Below, one piece after another: positions 1,093 to 12,943 of a stretch of DNA of 14,553 bases. Position 1 is the stretch's first letter. The number at the start of each line of letters is the position of its first letter. The DNA is taken from positions 1 through 14,553 of the forward strand of contig CALHQN010000052.1 in the NCBI GenBank assembly GCA_938036585.1, written 5' to 3'. A program made the translations under genes and the position numbers. The notes below the pieces were generated by a model, which worked only from the letters and a program-made list of their open reading frames with translations, ran no database searches and was not told the origin of the DNA. This DNA is from an uncultured Campylobacter sp. GTDB lineage: Bacteria; Campylobacterota; Campylobacteria; Campylobacterales; Campylobacteraceae.

Positions 1093-3413
<2,321 letters not shown>

Positions 3414-3422
3414 GAATTTGCG

Positions 3423-3827
3423 ATGAAAGAATTTTTGCTTTTAGATATCGTTACGCCCGAAGGGATGGTCTTTTCGGGTGAAGTTAAATCCGTCCAGCTA
3501 CCAGGTATCACCGGCGAGCTAGGCGTTTTGCCTGGGCATGCGAGCCTGCTAACGGGACTTAAAGATAAAAGCGAAGGCGGAGTCGTCGAGATCGTGGATA
3601 GAGATGGCAAAAAGCAGCTTGTTTTGGTAAACGATGGATTTTTGGAAGTGGATGAGGAAAAAACCACTATCTTGGCTACTCAAGCCGTAGCTATCGGCGG
3701 CGATAGCGAAAATGCGGTCGCGAAGTCTTTGCAGCGAGCCAAGGATATGCTTGCATCAATCAGCTCGGATGCGGCAAATTCTGCGGCGATTATGGCTAGA
3801 GTAGACGAATTCGCAAGGCAAAGTTAA
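3423..3827 (+). CDS. atpC: F1F0 ATP synthase subunit epsilon
   Basis: Epsilon sits at the foot of the gamma shaft and regulates ATP hydrolysis. The 134 residues fit the family. The first 85 or so form the beta-sandwich domain, with the recognisable VTPEGMVFSGEVKSVQLPG and GELGVLPGHASL segments. The remainder (SENAVAKSLQRAKDMLA onward) is the helical C-terminal part. The start is an ATG 9 nt after atpD. The stop is 2 nt from the next start codon, so the atp transcript runs directly into the Tol genes without a terminator. This arrangement is also known from C. jejuni. Confidence 0.95.
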   Translation: MKEFLLLDIVTPEGMVFSGEVKSVQLPGITGELGVLPGHASLLTGLKDKSEGGVVEIVDRDGKKQLVLVNDGFLEVDEEKTTILATQAVAIGGDSENAVAKSLQRAKDMLASISSDAANSAAIMARVDEFARQS

Positions 3828-3829
3828 GT

Positions 3830-4405
3830 ATGTTAGATTTAATTTTAAGTTATTTTACAAGAAGCACGTTTATTACGATATTCGTGCTTTCTTGGTTATC
3901 CATCTATTTTATCGTTACCGTTACGATCTTAGTTTCCAGATACGTGGGTCTTAGCGCATGGCAGCATCGTGAAGCTAAGGCGCTAGAATCCCTTTTAATG
4001 GGCGGCAGGATTTCGCTCTCCGGCTCCATCTTTCAAAAGATAAACACAGAAAAAATTTCAAAAGAGGCTCTCGCTATTTATAAGGGCAAGGCAGAGCGAG
4101 ATTCCACCAGTGGACTTACGTGGCTATCCATCATCGCTTCTACATCGCCTTTTATCGGGCTATTCGGTACGGTCGTTAGTATCCTGGATACCTTTTCGAA
4201 GCTCGGCGGCGGAAATTCCGGCATAGAGACTATCGCTCCTGCGATCAGCGAGGCGCTAGTTGCTACCGGATGCGGAATTTTCGTAGCGATCCCAGCATAT
4301 ACTTTTAGCCTGCTTATCAAACGCAAAGCCTACGAAGTGATGAGTATCATCAGCCGTACGGCAGATATTTTGCTATTTAAAGCAAACACCGGAAAAGCTA
4401 TTTAA
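3830..4405 (+). CDS. tolQ: TolQ/ExbB-type proton channel subunit
   Basis: This inner-membrane protein belongs to the MotA/TolQ/ExbB family. It forms a proton channel with the TolR/ExbD partner and energises TolA or TonB. In 191 residues there are three likely membrane helices at about 13-35, 97-121 and 143-163, with a cytoplasmic loop between the first and second. The family signatures are clear: SPFIGLFGTVVSIL (105-118) in helix 2 and EALVATGCGIFVAIPA (141-156) in helix 3, including the conserved Thr at 146. Annotation pipelines often call this gene exbB in Campylobacter. I favour a TolQ role because tolA, tolB and pal follow. It starts 2 nt after atpC without a strong ribosome binding site and overlaps the next gene by 1 nt (TAATG), which suggests coupled translation. 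Confidence 0.9.
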   Translation: MLDLILSYFTRSTFITIFVLSWLSIYFIVTVTILVSRYVGLSAWQHREAKALESLLMGGRISLSGSIFQKINTEKISKEALAIYKGKAERDSTSGLTWLSIIASTSPFIGLFGTVVSILDTFSKLGGGNSGIETIAPAISEALVATGCGIFVAIPAYTFSLLIKRKAYEVMSIISRTADILLFKANTGKAI

Positions 4406-4803
4406 TGTATAATTTCGATGAAAATCCAGAGCTTAATATCACGCCGCTTGTTGATATCATGCTCGTTCTGCTGGCGATTTTGATGGTTGCGCAAACGGCG
4501 ATAATCTACGACGAAAAGATCGAGTTGCCTAGTGGATCAAAAGCGCAGGTCTCACAGAATACGGCGGAATTTTTACTGGTTCGTATAGGCGAAGATCGCA
4601 AAGTCTATATCGATCAAAGCTCGATGAGCCTAGCGGAATTGCCAGACAATCTCGTGCTCATCAAAGGCACGGGCAAGTATAGCTTAGACAAGCCCGTTTT
4701 CATCCAAGCCGATAAAAGGCTTATTTACGACGACGTTATGTTTGTTTTAAAGACCTTAAAACAAGCGGGTTTTACGAAAGTCGCACTTCAAACAAATGGC
4801 TAA
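4405..4803 (+). CDS. tolR: TolR/ExbD-type proton channel subunit
   Basis: TolR/ExbD proteins have one membrane helix and a periplasmic domain that can contact peptidoglycan; they complete the proton channel with TolQ. The 132-residue product begins with a short cytoplasmic segment and then NITPLVDIMLVLLAILMV (11-28), in which Asp17 is the conserved proton-carrying residue of the family. The remainder (about 32-132) is a periplasmic ExbD/TolR domain. The start overlaps the tolQ stop by 1 nt and the last 8 nt overlap the tolA start, so the three genes form a translationally coupled set. The gene is often labelled exbD; the context supports TolR function. Confidence 0.9.
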   Translation: MYNFDENPELNITPLVDIMLVLLAILMVAQTAIIYDEKIELPSGSKAQVSQNTAEFLLVRIGEDRKVYIDQSSMSLAELPDNLVLIKGTGKYSLDKPVFIQADKRLIYDDVMFVLKTLKQAGFTKVALQTNG

Positions 4804-5776
4804 TTATTCAAATTTTACGGGGGTTAAATACGATAATTTCAAATCGTTTTTAATTGCCCTTTTTGCCTATTGGCTGGTGATTTTTGTTCTTTTATATCAA
4901 ATTTCAAAGCCGCAGGAAAAATTTAAAAAATATACTGACAATCCCAACGATTATATGGATGTTACTTTTGATTTCGAAATAGATGATAAACTTCCGTCCG
5001 CGCCTGAAATCGCTAAAGAAACAAAGCAAGGTGAGTTTGACAATAAGAATGTGAAGGACGTGCCGGAGGATAAAATTAAGACTACGGCGCAAGTAGTTCC
5101 GCCGCCTCCGGTGCAGGAAAAGCCGAAAGAGCCCGAAAAGCCGAAGGAAGAGCCGAAGACGGAACCTAAAAAGGACGAGCCTAAAGCTGAGCCCAAAAAA
5201 GAGGAGCCCAAGCCCGAGCCTAAGTTGGAAGATAAACCTTCCGAAAAAGTAGTAGAGAAAAAAGAGGAAGCTAAGCCGGAGCCGAAAAAAGAGGAAAAAC
5301 CGAGCTTGAGCGATCTTTTTTCGGATACGACTAAGGACAATAAAAAGCTTGAGGAAAGCGCCAAGGCTAGCGACGCGGTTCAGAGCAATAAAAAGTCCGA
5401 TAAAGAAACCGCCACTTCTAGCGCCAAGGACAAAGCGGCGTCTAAAAATGCCGTCGTTAAATCCGAAAAGCTTGGCGGCAGGACTCAAAGGACGGGCGAG
5501 TACAACGCCTATTACGGCGCGATAGAAAAGAAGCTTCAGGTTTTATGGAGTAGGTACGTAGCGACCACGAAAGATGATGCGACGATTAAGATAATTTTCG
5601 GTGCAGACGGACGGATCGTGGATTATAAAATCATCGAGCTGGGCAGAGAGACGGAATTTAACCAGAAACTGCGAGATTTTTTAGATAATCTATCGACCCA
5701 GAGCTTCCCGAAGTCTCCCGACGGAGCATCGCATGAGATCGAGACTAAGATGTCCGACGTGATGAAGTCGAATTAG
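4796..5776 (+). CDS. tolA: TolA-type energy transducer
   Basis: This protein spans the periplasm, takes energy from TolQ/TolR and acts on TolB-Pal at the outer membrane. The 326 residues show a short cytoplasmic N-terminus, one membrane anchor at about 16-36, and an acidic periplasmic stretch. A rigid Pro/Lys/Glu-rich segment follows at 100-170, then a charged low-complexity segment (about 175-230), and finally a folded TolA/TonB-like C-terminal domain at about 235-326 (AYYGAIEKKLQVLW, FGADGRIVDYKIIELGR). Sequence similarity to enterobacterial TolA is weak, so the name rests on architecture and position between tolR and tolB. The start overlaps the tolR end by 8 nt. The last 90 or so residues have a second, damaged copy just downstream (5795-6183). 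Confidence 0.85.
   Translation: MANYSNFTGVKYDNFKSFLIALFAYWLVIFVLLYQISKPQEKFKKYTDNPNDYMDVTFDFEIDDKLPSAPEIAKETKQGEFDNKNVKDVPEDKIKTTAQVVPPPPVQEKPKEPEKPKEEPKTEPKKDEPKAEPKKEEPKPEPKLEDKPSEKVVEKKEEAKPEPKKEEKPSLSDLFSDTTKDNKKLEESAKASDAVQSNKKSDKETATSSAKDKAASKNAVVKSEKLGGRTQRTGEYNAYYGAIEKKLQVLWSRYVATTKDDATIKIIFGADGRIVDYKIIELGRETEFNQKLRDFLDNLSTQSFPKSPDGASHEIETKMSDVMKSN
5093..5305 (+). repeat. Low-complexity Pro/Lys/Glu codon repeat in tolA
   Basis: This stretch encodes TolA residues 100-170, built from irregular repeats of EPKK, EKPK and KEEPK units. Such extended Pro/Lys/Glu segments are typical of TonB/TolA-type proteins that must bridge the periplasm. The bias also creates long open frames on the opposite strand that are not genes. 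The repeats are imperfect at DNA level, but the tract could still vary in length between strains. Confidence 0.7.
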
Positions 5777-6247
5777 AATTTTATAAGGAAAAGAGTGAAA
5801 AAACTTTTTAGTATTTTTGTGTTTTGCTGTATGCTTTTTGCAGAAGATGTGGATTCTGCTAAAAATTCTACCTCTTCAAATTTAAACATCGAAATTCAAA
5901 ATTCTAAATTAAAGGCTTATTACGAGAGATTGCAAAAAAGCTGGAAAATCTATGGCTAAAACAAGATCCTACCACTAACGATAGCGCGATGATTGAGGTT
6001 ACTTTCGGCGCAGACGGACGAGTAACGGATTATAAAATCATCGAGCTAGGGCGCGATATAAAATTTAATCAAAAGCTTAATGATTTTTTAAAAGGGCTTT
6101 CAGAGCAAAATTTTTCAAAATCACCGGATAATAAACCTCATAAACTTAATATGAGATTATCCGAGATTATGAAATCAAATTAAATTTAAAGGAGAAAAGA
6201 TGAAAAAACTGCTTATGATTCTTGCATTTTGCGGCAGCCTTTTTGCC
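5504..6247 (+). repeat. Tandem duplication across the tolA-tolB junction
   Basis: Two diverged copies lie head to tail. Copy 1 is about 5504-5842: the end of tolA, a short spacer, and the signal peptide of the duplicate. Copy 2 is about 5912-6247: the duplicate domain, a spacer, and the signal peptide of tolB. The AYY codons start at 5507 and 5915 and the stop codons at 5774 and 6181. The two intervals are therefore 267 and 266 nt, differing by exactly one base. The spacers from stop to start codon are 21 and 19 nt and similar in sequence. The two signal peptides are both 16 residues and share 10 of them. Over the last 64 residues I count 38 identities without gaps. One tandem duplication of about 407 bp explains all of this. 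Confidence 0.8.
5795..6183 (+). pseudogene. Secreted TolA C-terminal domain duplicate, frameshifted
   Basis: The GTG at 5795, preceded by AAGGAAAAGA, opens a frame for MKKLFSIFVFCCMLFA, a typical signal peptide, then a 24-residue linker and AYYERLQK. It then stops early at TAA 5957-5959. One extra A in the run of six at about 5934-5939 would continue it as QKKLENLWLKQD into FGADGRVTDYKIIELGR and on to the TAA at 6181-6183. That gives about 129 residues that align with the TolA C-terminal domain without further gaps. The intended product looks like a soluble periplasmic TolA/TonB-C domain without membrane anchor or Pro-rich bridge. The copy is more AT-rich than tolA, which fits weaker selection. 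A sequencing error, true decay or strain-level frame switching are all possible. An ATG at 5989 in the downstream frame has no ribosome binding site. Confidence 0.72.
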
Positions 6248-7447
6248 GTGGATGCGACGATGTCTATCGTGAACGAAGGGGTAAATTTACCTAAAATCGT
6301 CGTTCAAGACGCATCAAACATTCCAAATTCGGAATTTAGCAATAAATTCTTTAAACTGATGGTGGGCGACCTAAAGGTCGGCGCTACTTTCGAGGTCAGC
6401 GACGAGTATCTACAAAGCAGCTATGATGCGGACGCTTCCGGCAATCTCGGCTCTAGCGGCGCCGCTCTTATCGTGCGCTACGCGGTAAGCGAGAAAAGCT
6501 CGCCGATGAGCCTAAAAGCCAAAGTGCTTGAGGCAAACAGCGGCAGGGTAATGTATGAGAAGAGCTTTACGCTTTCAAATGCTGAAAAGTATCCGTTTTT
6601 AGCGCATATGGCGGTATCTGAGATCGTCAAACAGCTAGGGTATTCAAACGTCGATTGGATGAAGGAGATGATTCTGCTATCGCGCTATACTTCGACGCGC
6701 GAGAGTGAGATCATGGTCGCGGATTATACGCTTACCTATCAGCAGGTAGTGCTTCGCGGCGGATTAAATATCTTCCCTAAATGGGCAAGCGTGGCGCAGA
6801 ATGAATTTTATTACACCTACTACGTCAATAAAAACACGCCCGCTATCTATAAATTTAATCTATCCAACGGCAGCAAGAGTAAAATTTTTACCGGCCACGG
6901 TATGACGATCGCATCGGATGTCAGCGCAGACGGTAGAAAGCTTCTCATTACAAACGCACCTAAAGATCAACCCGACGTGTATGTTTATGATATAGCTTCG
7001 GGCTCCGCTAAACAGGTCACAAACTATCCCGGCATCGACGTAAATGGAAATTTCATCGACGGCGATTCGCGTATAGCGTTTGTTAGCGATCGTTTGGGCT
7101 ATCCGAACGTATTTGCTACCAGCGTAAACGGCGGAAACGTAGAGCAGCTCGTATATCACGGCAAAAACAATAACTCCATCAGCACCAACGGCAACTATAT
7201 TACTTATTCCAGTCGCGACGGCGGAGGCGGATTCAATATCTATTTAATCTCCACCAAAACCGATATGATACGCCAGCTAACAGCCAGCGGAAAAAATATG
7301 TTTCCTAGATTTTCCAGCGACGGCGGTAGCATCATGTTCATCAAGCAGGACGGCGGCGGCAGTTCGGTAGGCATTATCAGAGTTAATGAGAATAAAAGCT
7401 TCCAATTTCCGTTAAGAATCGGTAAAATTCAGTCCGTTGATTGGTAA
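6200..7447 (+). CDS. tolB: Tol-Pal system beta-propeller protein TolB
   Basis: TolB is a periplasmic protein that binds Pal and TolA and helps keep the outer membrane attached during division. The 415 residues begin with a cleavable signal peptide (MKKLLMILAFCGSLFA). An N-terminal alpha/beta domain follows at about 20-165, then a beta-propeller to the end. The propeller blades are visible as PD40-type repeats such as SADGRKLLIT, NYITYSSRDGGG and RFSSDGGSIMFI. The length is close to that of other Campylobacter TolB proteins. The ATG has a strong AAAGGAG site 6 nt upstream. The signal peptide is the sister of the one on the damaged duplicate just upstream. pal follows after 54 nt. Confidence 0.93.
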   Translation: MKKLLMILAFCGSLFAVDATMSIVNEGVNLPKIVVQDASNIPNSEFSNKFFKLMVGDLKVGATFEVSDEYLQSSYDADASGNLGSSGAALIVRYAVSEKSSPMSLKAKVLEANSGRVMYEKSFTLSNAEKYPFLAHMAVSEIVKQLGYSNVDWMKEMILLSRYTSTRESEIMVADYTLTYQQVVLRGGLNIFPKWASVAQNEFYYTYYVNKNTPAIYKFNLSNGSKSKIFTGHGMTIASDVSADGRKLLITNAPKDQPDVYVYDIASGSAKQVTNYPGIDVNGNFIDGDSRIAFVSDRLGYPNVFATSVNGGNVEQLVYHGKNNNSISTNGNYITYSSRDGGGGFNIYLISTKTDMIRQLTASGKNMFPRFSSDGGSIMFIKQDGGGSSVGIIRVNENKSFQFPLRIGKIQSVDW

Positions 7448-7467
7448 AATATTAAAAAACTCTATGA

Positions 7468-7473
7468 TATAAT
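7468..7473 (+). promoter_or_regulatory. Probable sigma-70 -10 box before pal
   Basis: A consensus TATAAT, within GATATAATGACTTCA, lies 28 nt before the pal start in the only AT-rich gap of the Tol block. Campylobacter sigma-70 promoters depend mainly on the -10 box and lack a firm -35 element, and none is obvious here. This would let the abundant lipoprotein Pal be made at a higher level than the upstream genes. It is predicted from sequence only. Confidence 0.6.
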
Positions 7474-7501
7474 GACTTCAATTTTTTTGAAAGGATAGGA
7501 A

Positions 7502-7975
7502 ATGAAACATTTAGTTTTATCTTCGATAGCAGTTGCTGCTCTATTATTGAGCGGTTGTTCTAAAAAAACTCCAGAGGTTGATTCTTCAAACTCAAATAAT
7601 GGAGACAGACTAGCTGCTTTGGCCGCTCAGATCCAAAGCGAGGTAGGCACAGTTTATTTCGACTTTGATAAATTTAATATTAGAGCCGATCAACAAGGCA
7701 CAATCAATAACAATGCAGCTCTATTCAACCAAGCAGGCGCAGAGGCTCTAACTGTTAAAGTTGAGGGTAACTGCGACGAGTGGGGTTCTGACGAGTACAA
7801 CTACGCTCTTGGTCTAAAGAGGGCTACTGCAGCTAAAGATGCATTGGTTGCTCAAGGCGTAAGCGAGGGCAGAATTTCCGTAGTAAGCTACGGCGAGAGC
7901 AACATGGTTTGCACAGAGCATTCTAAAGAGTGCGATGCTCAAAATAGACGCGACGAATTCAAAGTTGGTTTCTAA
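7502..7975 (+). CDS. pal: Peptidoglycan-associated lipoprotein Pal
   Basis: Pal is anchored in the outer membrane by lipid and binds peptidoglycan; TolB and TolA control its position. The C. jejuni counterpart is the antigen Omp18. The 157-residue product has a lipobox LLSGC with the lipidated Cys at 19, a short Ser/Asn linker, and an OmpA-like domain at about 50-157. Key segments are VYFDFDKFNIR, VEGNCDEWGSDEYNYALGLKRA (Asp92 in the position of the diaminopimelate-binding Asp of the family) and SYGESN, then NRRDEF near the end. Cys91, Cys137 and Cys144 lie in the periplasmic domain and could allow a disulfide. A site AAGGA lies 6 nt before the ATG, with a likely promoter further upstream. 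Confidence 0.95.
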   Translation: MKHLVLSSIAVAALLLSGCSKKTPEVDSSNSNNGDRLAALAAQIQSEVGTVYFDFDKFNIRADQQGTINNNAALFNQAGAEALTVKVEGNCDEWGSDEYNYALGLKRATAAKDALVAQGVSEGRISVVSYGESNMVCTEHSKECDAQNRRDEFKVGF

Positions 7976-7976
7976 T

Positions 7977-8795
7977 TTGAAATTTAAAAATTTCACGGTG
8001 GTAGCTCTTTTGGGAGCTGCCACCTTTTTAAATGCCGAAACTTCCGCATTTAGCGCAGGCAGTATCGATTCCGGCAGCTCTTATGGGCTTACCGAGAATG
8101 AGCAGGTATTGCGCGACAACCGCAAGCGTATAAGCGAGATGCAGTCTAGCGTTGATAGTACTCGCGAGAGCGTAGAAGGCTTGCGTACCGTGCTTGAAGG
8201 CACTAACTCCCAAATTTCAAAACTTGAAAGTAGAGTGGCGGATCTGGAAATTCGTGCTACCGGCAAAAGCCAAGGCAGCAGCGAGCTAGATCAGATGAAA
8301 CGAGATATCGCTACTATAAAAGCTCAAATCGCAGAGATCAATAAAAAATTAGGCAGCGGCGGCAGCGTAAAAAAAAACGCTGAATTAGACGCAGCCACTG
8401 CTCCGGCTCCCGCTAGCACAAAAACAGATTCCGATTTTAAATCAAAAGATCAGGCTTCGGTGCTGAAAGAGGCCGACGCTTTATATGCTAAAAAAGACTA
8501 TTCCGGCGCAAAAGAGCGCTACACCTATCTAGTATCCAAAAATTACAAGCCAGCGAAGGCAAACTATATGCTGGGCGAAATTTCATATTTTTCCGGCTCA
8601 TACGCAGAAGCGATAAACTATTACAAAAAGAGCATCTCGCACAACGAGAGCCAAGACTACACCCCAAAACTTCTTTATCACACCGCGATCAGCTTCGATA
8701 AGATCGGCGATAAAGACAGCGCAGATAAATTCTACAAAGCGCTAAAGGCTTCATATCCGGACTCCAAAGAAGCCAAAGCTGCGCCCACTAGATAA
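7977..8795 (+). CDS. cpoB: Tol-Pal associated coiled-coil/TPR protein CpoB (YbgF)
   Basis: CpoB is a periplasmic protein that links Tol-Pal function with septal peptidoglycan synthesis in E. coli. Starting from the TTG at 7977, just after the pal stop, the 272 residues begin with a compact signal peptide (MKFKNFTVVALLGAATFLNA). A coiled coil follows at about 40-126, then an Ala/Pro/Thr linker and TPR repeats at about 158-265 (EADALYAKKDYSGAKERY, NYMLGEISYFSGSYAEAINYYKK). An in-frame ATG at 7935 overlaps pal by 41 nt and would add 14 residues before the signal peptide. I prefer 7977 because it gives a normal Lys-plus-hydrophobic leader, but no start has a strong ribosome binding site. Position after pal supports the assignment. 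Confidence 0.88.
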   Translation: MKFKNFTVVALLGAATFLNAETSAFSAGSIDSGSSYGLTENEQVLRDNRKRISEMQSSVDSTRESVEGLRTVLEGTNSQISKLESRVADLEIRATGKSQGSSELDQMKRDIATIKAQIAEINKKLGSGGSVKKNAELDAATAPAPASTKTDSDFKSKDQASVLKEADALYAKKDYSGAKERYTYLVSKNYKPAKANYMLGEISYFSGSYAEAINYYKKSISHNESQDYTPKLLYHTAISFDKIGDKDSADKFYKALKASYPDSKEAKAAPTR

Positions 8796-8844: not shown

Positions 8845-9492
8845 ATGGCTAACAACCGAGTTATAAAGATGCATTATGAGCTAAAGGACGGCAAAACCGG
8901 CGAAATTTTAGAGTCAAATTTAAACTCCGACCCGATCGCCTTTCTTAGCGGCAAAGATCAAATCATCCAAAAGCTGGAAGATGAAATTTTAAATCTACAA
9001 GCGGGCGAGAGCAAAACAGTTCGCATAAGCCCGAGCGACGGGGTCGGCGAGTATAGAGAAGACGCTGTGCAGATCCTGCCTAAAGAGCAGTTTGCGGGCA
9101 TTGATCTGGTCGTCGGTATGGAGCTTTTCGGCCAGGCGGAGGACGGCGCGACTACCCGCGTGAGCGTCAAAGCTATCGGCGAGCAGGACGTTACCATCGA
9201 CTTTAACCATCCATTTGCGGGTAAGGAGCTGGAATTTAACGTAAAAATCGTCGAGAATCGCGAAGCGACGGCGGACGAAATTCTTACCGGCCAGCCGGAG
9301 GGTGCTCACAGCTGCGGCTGCGGACATAATCATCACGAGGGGCACGAGTGCTGCGGCGGACACGGACACGATCACGCAGAGGATCACGAGTGTTGCGGAG
9401 GCCATGGGCATGCAGACGGTCATGAATGCTGCGGAGGTCACGATCACGGGAAAGATCACGAGTGCTGCGGCGGGCACCACCACGAGCATTAG
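8845..9492 (+). CDS. slyD: SlyD-type FKBP peptidyl-prolyl isomerase with Cys/His metal tail
   Basis: SlyD proteins are cytoplasmic prolyl isomerases and chaperones; their His/Cys-rich tails bind nickel or zinc and can serve metal delivery to hydrogenase or urease. In 215 residues the FKBP domain is split (about 1-70 and 120-145) around an insert-in-flap chaperone domain (about 70-120). The conserved GVGEYREDAVQ and NHPFAGKELEF segments are visible. From residue 155 the tail is extreme: four HECCGGH units at 167, 181, 193 and 205 within GHDHAEDH-like spacers, ending in HHHEH. The ATG at 8845 has an AGGAG site 6 nt upstream. A 49-nt AT-rich gap separates it from cpoB and holds a weak TAAAAT (8821) that may be a promoter. 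fabD follows after 9 nt. Confidence 0.93.
   Translation: MANNRVIKMHYELKDGKTGEILESNLNSDPIAFLSGKDQIIQKLEDEILNLQAGESKTVRISPSDGVGEYREDAVQILPKEQFAGIDLVVGMELFGQAEDGATTRVSVKAIGEQDVTIDFNHPFAGKELEFNVKIVENREATADEILTGQPEGAHSCGCGHNHHEGHECCGGHGHDHAEDHECCGGHGHADGHECCGGHDHGKDHECCGGHHHEH
9343..9489 (+). repeat. In-frame tandem repeat encoding HECCGGH units of SlyD
   Basis: Four copies of a 21-bp block with consensus CAYGARTGYTGCGGHGGNCA recur at spacings of 42, 36 and 36 bp, all multiples of three. Copies differ mainly at third codon positions, so the peptide is kept while the DNA drifts. This points to old unit duplication under selection for the metal-binding peptide. Confidence 0.8.
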
Positions 9493-11887: not shown

Positions 11888-11893
11888 AATTTT

Positions 11894-12213
11894 AAGCGGT
11901 TTGCACTCCCTCGCTCAAACGAATTCAAAGCGCGCAGTTCTTGCGATAACATTAGTTTCGTACGCCTAGTTCGATTTTTTTTGGCTTGAATGAGCCTGAC
12001 GCACGCAGAGCGGTTGTCTTTCCCTGTGCTCGAACGGGTCGCGAGCCGTAGCGCGAGCGGTTGAATCACTGTGTTTAAATTGCAGCACAAGCGATTGCGC
12101 TTCTGCATCTAAGTTGTGCGCGAGCCGCGGCGAATAGTTATCCCCCCTGCGTCCAAACTACGCGCACGAGCTTAGGCTGTGCGCACGAGCGGTTATACCC
12201 GCTGCGCCCGAGG
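11894..12213 (+). repeat. Degenerate GC-rich repeat family, about 28 bp
   Basis: A block with the pattern GAGCGGTT, a few variable bases, then CCCTGYGCTCGAACG recurs at about 11894, 12007, 12055, 12187 and, more weakly, within 12122-12158 (GTTATCCCCCCTGCGTCCAA). Spacing is irregular at about 45-115 bp. Between copies the words GCGCGAGC, GCACGAGC and GAGTAGCGCG return. Copies are diverged and were aligned by eye, so borders are approximate. Confidence 0.45.
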
Positions 12214-12363
12214 GCTGCGAGTAGCGCGGGTTCTGCCGCCTGTATCTACTTTTGCAAAACAGCTGCGGCTACTTTCGGCGCCGCACTTTCGTCTTGCTCG
12301 GATGTCGCCCGTGTCCAAGCGAGCTTTACGGGCGAGCGTTAAGGGGCTTGCAAAGTTTGCGCG

Positions 12364-12580
12364 AAAGATAGTTGTAGAAATTCTATCTCAAAAAATGCTT
12401 TAGAAATTTAATCCCGTAAAATTTTAAAATTTTATCGGAGGCTTCCTTTTGGGCTGTAGGTGCGGACTCGATCGCCGTGCGCCGTAAATTTAAACCGCTC
12501 GCCCGCTCCGCTAAAGATAGTTTTAGAAATTTATTCCGCAAAATGTTTCTAAAATTTTACCTCACAAAATTTCAAAATTT
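12364..12580 (+). repeat. Direct repeat pair of about 70 bp
   Basis: Copy 1 (12364-12433) and copy 2 (12513-12580) both begin AAAGATAGTT and share TAGAAATT, then AAAATG, a CCCGTAAAATTTT/CCTCACAAAATTT block and a final AAAATTTT. Starts are 149 bp apart. Small indels and substitutions separate them, so the duplication is old. Copy 2 runs into the 24-bp array that follows. Confidence 0.6.
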
Positions 12581-12690
12581 TAACGAAGCCGAGTTCAAAA
12601 TTCCGACGGAGCTAAATTTTAAAATTTCAAAGCAAGCGAATTTTAAAATTTAGCAAAGCCGAATTCTGAAATTTTATCGTAGCCAAATTT
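12557..12690 (+). repeat. Degenerate tandem array, period 23-24 bp
   Basis: Units start near 12557, 12580, 12603, 12627, 12651 and 12674 (lengths 23, 23, 24, 24, 23, and a partial 17). The approximate consensus is a variable TNANCRAAGCC half followed by GAATTTTAAAATT. The period is not a multiple of three throughout, and no reading frame runs across, so it is not a coding repeat. Units are too diverged and adjacent to each other to be a CRISPR array. Confidence 0.6.
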
Positions 12691-12905
12691 CCGCTCTCAT
12701 TCCATAAACGTTACCTTTTGAAATTTCGCCGCTCGCGCCGGCTTAAATTTCACGCGGCTTCAAAACTCCTCAAACCCTCCGCTGTCGCGCGCGCAGATTA
12801 AATTTTAAAATTTCGCGGGCGCTGCATTGCTTCTCAAATTTACACACCGCAAAATTTTAACCGATTTTCGCTCCGAAATTTATGCCGCATTAACCACCGC
12901 GGATA

Positions 12906-12938
12906 TATAATAGCAAATGTCATATTTCACGTAAGGAG
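12906..12938 (+). promoter_or_regulatory. Promoter -10 box and ribosome binding site of the aldehyde dehydrogenase gene
   Basis: TATAAT at 12906-12911, within GGATATATAATAGC, is a consensus -10 box 32 nt before the start codon. AAGGAG at 12933-12938 lies 5 nt before the ATG at 12944. Together they indicate separate, well-translated expression of this gene. No clear -35 box is seen, as is usual in Campylobacter. Confidence 0.65.
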
Positions 12939-12943
12939 TAAGC

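What the first reader, a model, noticed from the sequence alone, without database searches (positions are those of the whole stretch)
5504..6247. Chimeric gene born from a tandem duplication: TolB signal peptide fused to the TolA C-terminal domain
The segment between tolA and tolB encodes a TolB-like 16-residue signal peptide joined to a copy of the last 90 or so residues of TolA. A single tandem duplication of about 407 bp, starting inside tolA and ending just after the tolB signal sequence, would give exactly this order. The geometry fits: 267 versus 266 nt from the AYY codons to the stop, spacers of 21 and 19 nt, 10 of 16 shared signal-peptide residues (35 of 48 bases), and 38 of 64 shared domain residues. 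The result would be a free periplasmic TolA domain III lacking the anchor and bridge. It could compete with TolA for TolB or Pal, or act as a decoy for toxins or phages that use TolA. The origin is read from the sequence; the function is inference.
Basis: partly seen in the sequence, partly recalled or inferred. Interest (0 to 1): 0.72.

Follow-up and report, generated by a model that had tools for sequence, protein, structure and literature searches.

The report
Broken secreted TolA-domain duplicate gene
An old tandem duplication in one Campylobacter lineage joined a TolB-like export signal to a copy of the last domain of TolA, giving a small exported protein that is intact and fast-evolving in relatives but broken by a frameshift in this window; it may act as a free competitor or decoy for whatever grips TolA.

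The parts
3830..4405 (+). tolQ-like gene (context)
   Evidence: open frame; named from position and sequence (recalled), no domain search made for this frame
4405..4803 (+). tolR-like gene (context)
   Evidence: Pfam ExbD PF02472, 94.9 bits
4796..5776 (+). tolA, full length, 326 aa
   Evidence: Pfam TonB_2 PF13103 at residues 236-315, 31.3 bits, cut-off 22; named tolA from position and architecture (recalled)
5504..5776 (+). tolA domain III, source of the duplicate
   Evidence: 175 of 271 bases shared with 5912-6183
5795..5842 (+). TolB-like signal peptide of the extra gene (GTG start)
   Evidence: spacer+leader 49 of 63 bases shared with tolB; leader comparison
5843..5911 (+). linker of the extra gene, dN/dS about 1 (1.08, 95% bootstrap 0.27-4.07)
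5912..6183 (+). copy of TolA domain III; frame changes near 5923-5926, frame 0 ends at the stop 5957-5959
6200..7447 (+). tolB, with its own signal peptide 6200-6247
   Evidence: open frame; Pfam PD40 repeats
7502..7975 (+). pal-like lipoprotein gene (context)
   Evidence: open frame; named from sequence and position (recalled)

Best explanation
In the lineage of C. gracilis and its unnamed relatives, a tandem duplication running from inside tolA (just before the last 90 or so codons) to just past the tolB signal sequence placed a new gene between tolA and tolB: TolB-like leader, short linker, TolA domain III. Shown: homology, position, lineage restriction in the genomes searched, an intact version in relatives, selection on the domain, a predicted TolA-III/TonB-type fold, and a broken frame in this window. 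Inferred: the intact product is exported and soluble, because it lacks TolA's membrane anchor and bridge, and offers the beta-sheet edge that TolB's N-terminus, phage g3p or colicin N use on TolA. It would act as a free, motor-uncoupled TolA-III that either soaks up parasite proteins (decoy) or trims Tol activity by competing for TolB. I lean slightly to the decoy because the domain's dN/dS is about ten times that of TolA's own domain (0.47 against 0.04) while the frame is open in relatives. My split for function: decoy 0.35, TolB competitor or modulator 0.30, little or no function with relaxed constraint 0.30, other 0.05. In the window the gene has been lost by a frameshift (or the base is missing only in the assembly), which fits a dispensable accessory role.
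Confidence: 0.6

Rival explanations
1. Free competitor for TolB: the exported domain binds TolB's N-terminus without being tied to the motor, lowering or tuning Tol-Pal force and so outer-membrane tightness or vesicle release.
For: Operon slot beside tolB; TolA-III-type fold; signal-directed TolA-III in E. coli raises release of an exported protein (PMC6195910, passages); GTG start in window and G010 could keep the dose low.
Against: The last strand is the least conserved element (type B against TolA 1 of 9, type A against type B 2 of 9), though strand addition depends on backbone more than side chains; the domain's dN/dS is about ten times TolA's. [quoted passage not shown]
Confidence: 0.3
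2. Nearly functionless leftover: an old duplicate under weak constraint that is decaying; the window shows the end state.
For: Broken in the window; a second truncated type-B piece, departing elsewhere, in another uncultured Campylobacter, P0168; dN/dS 0.47, linker about 1.
Against: Domain pN below pS, p = 0.009; 47 related proteins, 40 of them 127-131 aa, although that collection and its length limit favour open frames; leader nearly identical across types A and B.
Confidence: 0.3
3. The frame break in the window is a sequencing or assembly error and the gene is intact there.
For: A single-base difference; the closest protein P0156 is open through this place; no reads could be examined.
Against: The tolQ, tolR, tolA, tolB and pal frames of the window are open, so errors are not common there; another disrupted type-B relative exists.
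Confidence: 0.25
4. The extra gene was acquired separately (another TonB/TolA C-terminal domain or lateral transfer) and only resembles tolA by descent of the family.
For: The domain differs from the own TolA at 37 of 85 residues.
Against: Clade of copies with gracilis-type TolA at 99/83 excluding the nearest outgroup TolA; shared spacer and leader with tolB; no second match in the other 149 family genomes.
Confidence: 0.08

Closest known systems
TolA domain III (E. coli, V. cholerae, P. aeruginosa; PDB 1tol, 2x9a, 4g7x, 1lr0, 3qdr)
   Different: Known TolA-III is the end of an anchored, motor-coupled protein; here it is a separate protein with its own export signal and no bridge or anchor
Engineered periplasmic TolA-III (ribose-binding-protein signal fused to TolA-III, used to release periplasmic protein; PMC6195910, passages read)
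   Same: Same architecture: signal sequence plus TolA-III
   Different: Man-made and overproduced; the Campylobacter gene is natural, sits in the tol gene cluster and has evolved under selection
TonB C-terminal domain proteins (Pfam TonB_2, PF13103)
   Same: Intact copies are mostly marked PF13103 in the collection's table; TonB-CTD chains follow TolA-III closely in fold comparison
   Different: The PF13103 matches listed for 200 phylum genomes (189 with a match) sit in frames of 180 aa or more (list cut, G010's rows not shown); the copy is 131 aa

Membership tests
TolA (full protein) | N-terminal membrane anchor and long bridge domain | tested here: not met
   The extra gene has a short leader and about 25 linker residues before the domain
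TolA (full protein) | C-terminal domain III homologous to TolA | tested here: met
   175 of 271 bases with tolA; 48 of 85 residues; TolA-III leads the fold comparison of the intact relative P0121
TolA (full protein) | Binding of TolB N-terminus | not testable with these tools
   Needs purified protein
Pfam TonB_2 PF13103 | Score over the curated cut-off | tested here: inconclusive
   Window's open 64-aa piece 15.8 bits against cut-off 22, with an unrelated family (Mat89Bb, 15.4 bits) at a lower E-value; 46 of 47 relatives are marked PF13103 in the collection's precomputed table
Exported periplasmic protein | Sec signal peptide | tested here: inconclusive
   Leader resembles TolB's at DNA and protein level; no signal-peptide predictor was run
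Pseudogene (in this window) | Reading frame interrupted relative to intact homologues | tested here: met
   Stop at 5957-5959 and frame change, while P0121 and P0156 are open; a sequencing error cannot be excluded

The most novel reading that the evidence does not exclude
A naturally evolved, secreted TolA-III decoy: a tandem duplication built in one step an exported copy of the cell's own toxin and phage port, which then diverged quickly into at least two types (A and B) with mosaic forms (P0155, P0156) under pressure from Tol-using bacteriocins or phages.
Probability: 0.2. Interest if true: 0.8.

Novelty: new variant of a known kind. Interest (0 to 1): 0.5.

Why it matters
It is a compact, readable case of a gene born from a tandem duplication that supplied both an export signal and a domain. 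If the intact form is a free TolA-III, it is a natural counterpart of a laboratory construct that disturbs the envelope. It would make testable whether bacteria use detached pieces of their own force transducer to tune the envelope or to foil Tol-using bacteriocins and phages. None of the listings of my paper searches (titles and abstract starts) showed a description of it; subscription papers are mostly not in that library.

Tried and rejected
Phage or viral source: no DNA match of 4405-7975 in 50,697 phage records and no relative of P0162 in viral contigs; unsupported. TolB's TolA-binding N-terminus carried along in the linker: in eight comparisons 778 to 1979 of 2000 shuffles were as good; the best ungapped one had 3.9% of shuffles as good; at DNA level 684 and 124 of 1000; not supported. 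Linker from TolA upstream sequence: of four protein comparisons 1, 47, 93 and 342 of 2000 shuffles were as good, helped by the domain's own first residues that I left in; DNA 22 of 1000; undecided. Raised diversity of TolA's own domain: 0.084 against 0.072 in the rest over 78 rows; not supported. Own promoter or terminator: no listed site lies between tolA and tolB, and numbers in 3300-8000 are at chance. RNA elements and tRNAs: none in the window. Programmed frameshift: judged from the sequence only; I saw no in-phase slippery heptamer, and the A run there has six bases; not tested further. PDB sequence search: only chance hits, no TolA. The leader at protein level is not decisive. Intact counts are biased: the collection holds predicted proteins and the search keeps 0.55-1.75 times the query length, so broken copies are under-counted. 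The family search used one query and left 64 of 150 genomes without any match, so a far-diverged copy could be missed. Co-inheritance of copy type with TolA type could not be tested for want of DNA.

Full report
What is in the sequence. The window carries tolQ, tolR, tolA, tolB and pal in order (open frames; Pfam for tolR, tolA and tolB; tolQ and pal named from position and recall). Between tolA (stop ending at 5776) and tolB (ATG at 6200) lies a GTG-started frame at 5795. It begins with a 16-residue leader like TolB's, and 5912-6183 is a copy of the end of tolA. The domain parts share 175 of 271 aligned bases (z 17.5, 0 of 500 shuffles); spacer plus leader share 49 of 63 (z 7.6, 0 of 500); the spacer alone is weaker (2 of 500).

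The frame is broken. Translating from 5795 gives 54 codons and a stop at 5957-5959; the TolA-like part continues in another frame up to 6183. Set against the intact relative P0156, the change lies just after the AYY codons, near 5923-5926. Intact copies exist in relatives; I read the two pieces apart and did not mend them. Whether the break is real or a sequencing error cannot be told without reads.

Is the leader really TolB's? In 20 stretches of 20 kb plus 14.6 kb of genome G010 a simple filter gave 52 signal-peptide-like starts, one of them the copy itself. Over 66 nt (18 upstream plus leader) G010's copy scores 22 with tolB and at most 10 with the 51 others (mean -8.3, sd 8.7). For the window's copy, tolB scores 29; of the 52 only G010's own copy scored higher (44), the next 10. 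At protein level the margin is small: 48 against 40 and 38 in G010, 47 against 42 and 42 in the window. A TolB origin is likely, not proven.

Relatives. No genome is held for the window. A TolB search gave 38 loci. The genus of G001, as the tool groups it, held 14 genomes, all with tolB. Only G010, 94% identical in TolB, has an extra frame: 131 residues, open, 18 nt after tolA and 15 nt before tolB. In the other 13 the tolA-tolB gap is -1 to 59 nt. G010 is probably C. gracilis: its product equals P0121, which a source names so, and its contig has nearly the length given for P0121's longest contig (2,281,652 and 2,281,730); this is inference. A search with P0162 in 150 genomes of the family matched 86; G010 alone gave two matches (the copy and its TolA), and the matches of the other 85 lie in frames of 224-330 residues. 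A search for PF13103 in 200 genomes of the phylum matched 189; the listed matches lie in frames of 180 residues or more, but the list was cut and does not show G010's, so it does not exclude small frames elsewhere.

Protein collection. The intact copy of G010 found 47 proteins, all at E 4e-27 or better, 40 of them 127-131 aa long. By tree and alignment they fall into type A (like C. gracilis) and type B (P0155-P0167, nearer the window's copy); leaders are nearly identical while linkers and domains differ (16 of the 47 read, 26 aligned, 38 in the tree). P0156 is type B with a type A-like end, and P0155 is type B with a TolA-like end, which hints at recombination or assembly mixing. The window's first piece found one protein, P0168, a 59-residue type B leader and linker that departs at another place (longest contig 40,428 bases).

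History and selection. In a tree of 115 domain rows (110 different, 95 columns; many forks unresolved, bootstrap not settled) the copies and the gracilis-type TolA domains form one clade (99/83) without the nearest outgroup TolA. The copies need two changes, type B lying nearer TolA (90/58); one origin is not ruled out. Copy and own tolA domain are saturated at synonymous sites (41 of 53 in the window, 45 of 57 in G010), so the event is old. Between window and G010, dN/dS is 0.04 for the tolA domain and for tolB, 0.47 (0.22-0.89; p = 0.009 for pN against pS) for the copy's domain, 1.08 (0.27-4.07) for its linker and 0.27 (0 to 1.26) for its leader. The domain is thus kept, but loosely. By DNA identity the copy is the most divergent coding stretch of the tol region (domain 65%, against 83% for the tolA domain, tolQ 83%, tolR 85%, tolB 88%, pal 92%).

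Structure. AlphaFold models of the intact P0162 and P0121 have mean pLDDT 80.5 and 76.1, with a confident domain of order helix-strand-strand-helix-strand and an uncertain leader and linker. In Foldseek against the PDB no match reached E 0.001; the first are H. pylori TonB-CTD (2.3e-3) and E. coli TolA with g3p of phage IF1 (6.6e-3) for P0162, and the same TolA chain (2.3e-3) for P0121, followed by other TolA and TonB domains. VIA-align, run on P0121 only, lists 1tol 8.6, 2x9a 8.4, 4g7x 7.7, 1lr0 7.4 and 3qdr 7.4, all TolA domain III, then H. pylori TonB-CTD, also 7.4; folds other than TolA/TonB reach at most 5.1. Rows within 1 are ties, so TolA-III over TonB is a lean; the sequence kinship with tolA settles it. 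The profile search of PDB sequences found no TolA.

How it may work. From passages read: TolB's N-terminus and phage g3p bind one edge strand of TolA-III, colicin A another side (PMC7391070); colicin N and g3p compete with TolB (PMC4339652); [quoted passage not shown] TolA-III exported in E. coli raised release of an exported protein (PMC6195910; its authors call it a pore). A free domain could therefore compete for TolB or catch parasites. The last strand is the least conserved element (type A against type B 2 of 9, type B against TolA 1 of 9, type A against TolA 4 of 9), which I read as slightly favouring a decoy over a plain TolB competitor; relaxed constraint would look much the same. None of these functions was tested.

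Verdict. An old, lineage-limited tandem duplication is well supported as the origin; the gene is broken in this window as sequenced; the function is open. The listings of the paper searches showed no description of such a gene by title or abstract start.

Noticed in passing
window 4796-5420: The first 236 codons of tolA are 96% identical to G010 (dS 0.17) while tolQ, tolR and the tolA domain have dS 1.15-1.27 and tolB 0.7: a likely recombined tract.
   Followed up: partly
P0155, P0156 (proteins): Mosaic copy proteins joining type B to a TolA-like or type A-like end: gene conversion or assembly mixing.
   Followed up: partly
P0168 (protein): A second disrupted type-B piece, departing at a place different from the window's.
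   Followed up: no
window 9302-9492: Repeated His/Cys-rich tail (HECCGGHGH-like units) of the SlyD-like protein, with length differences against G010.
   Followed up: no
window 11888-12943: About 1 kb with no frame over 74 aa, poorly conserved against G010 in part, with large gaps; no tRNA or Rfam family.
   Followed up: partly
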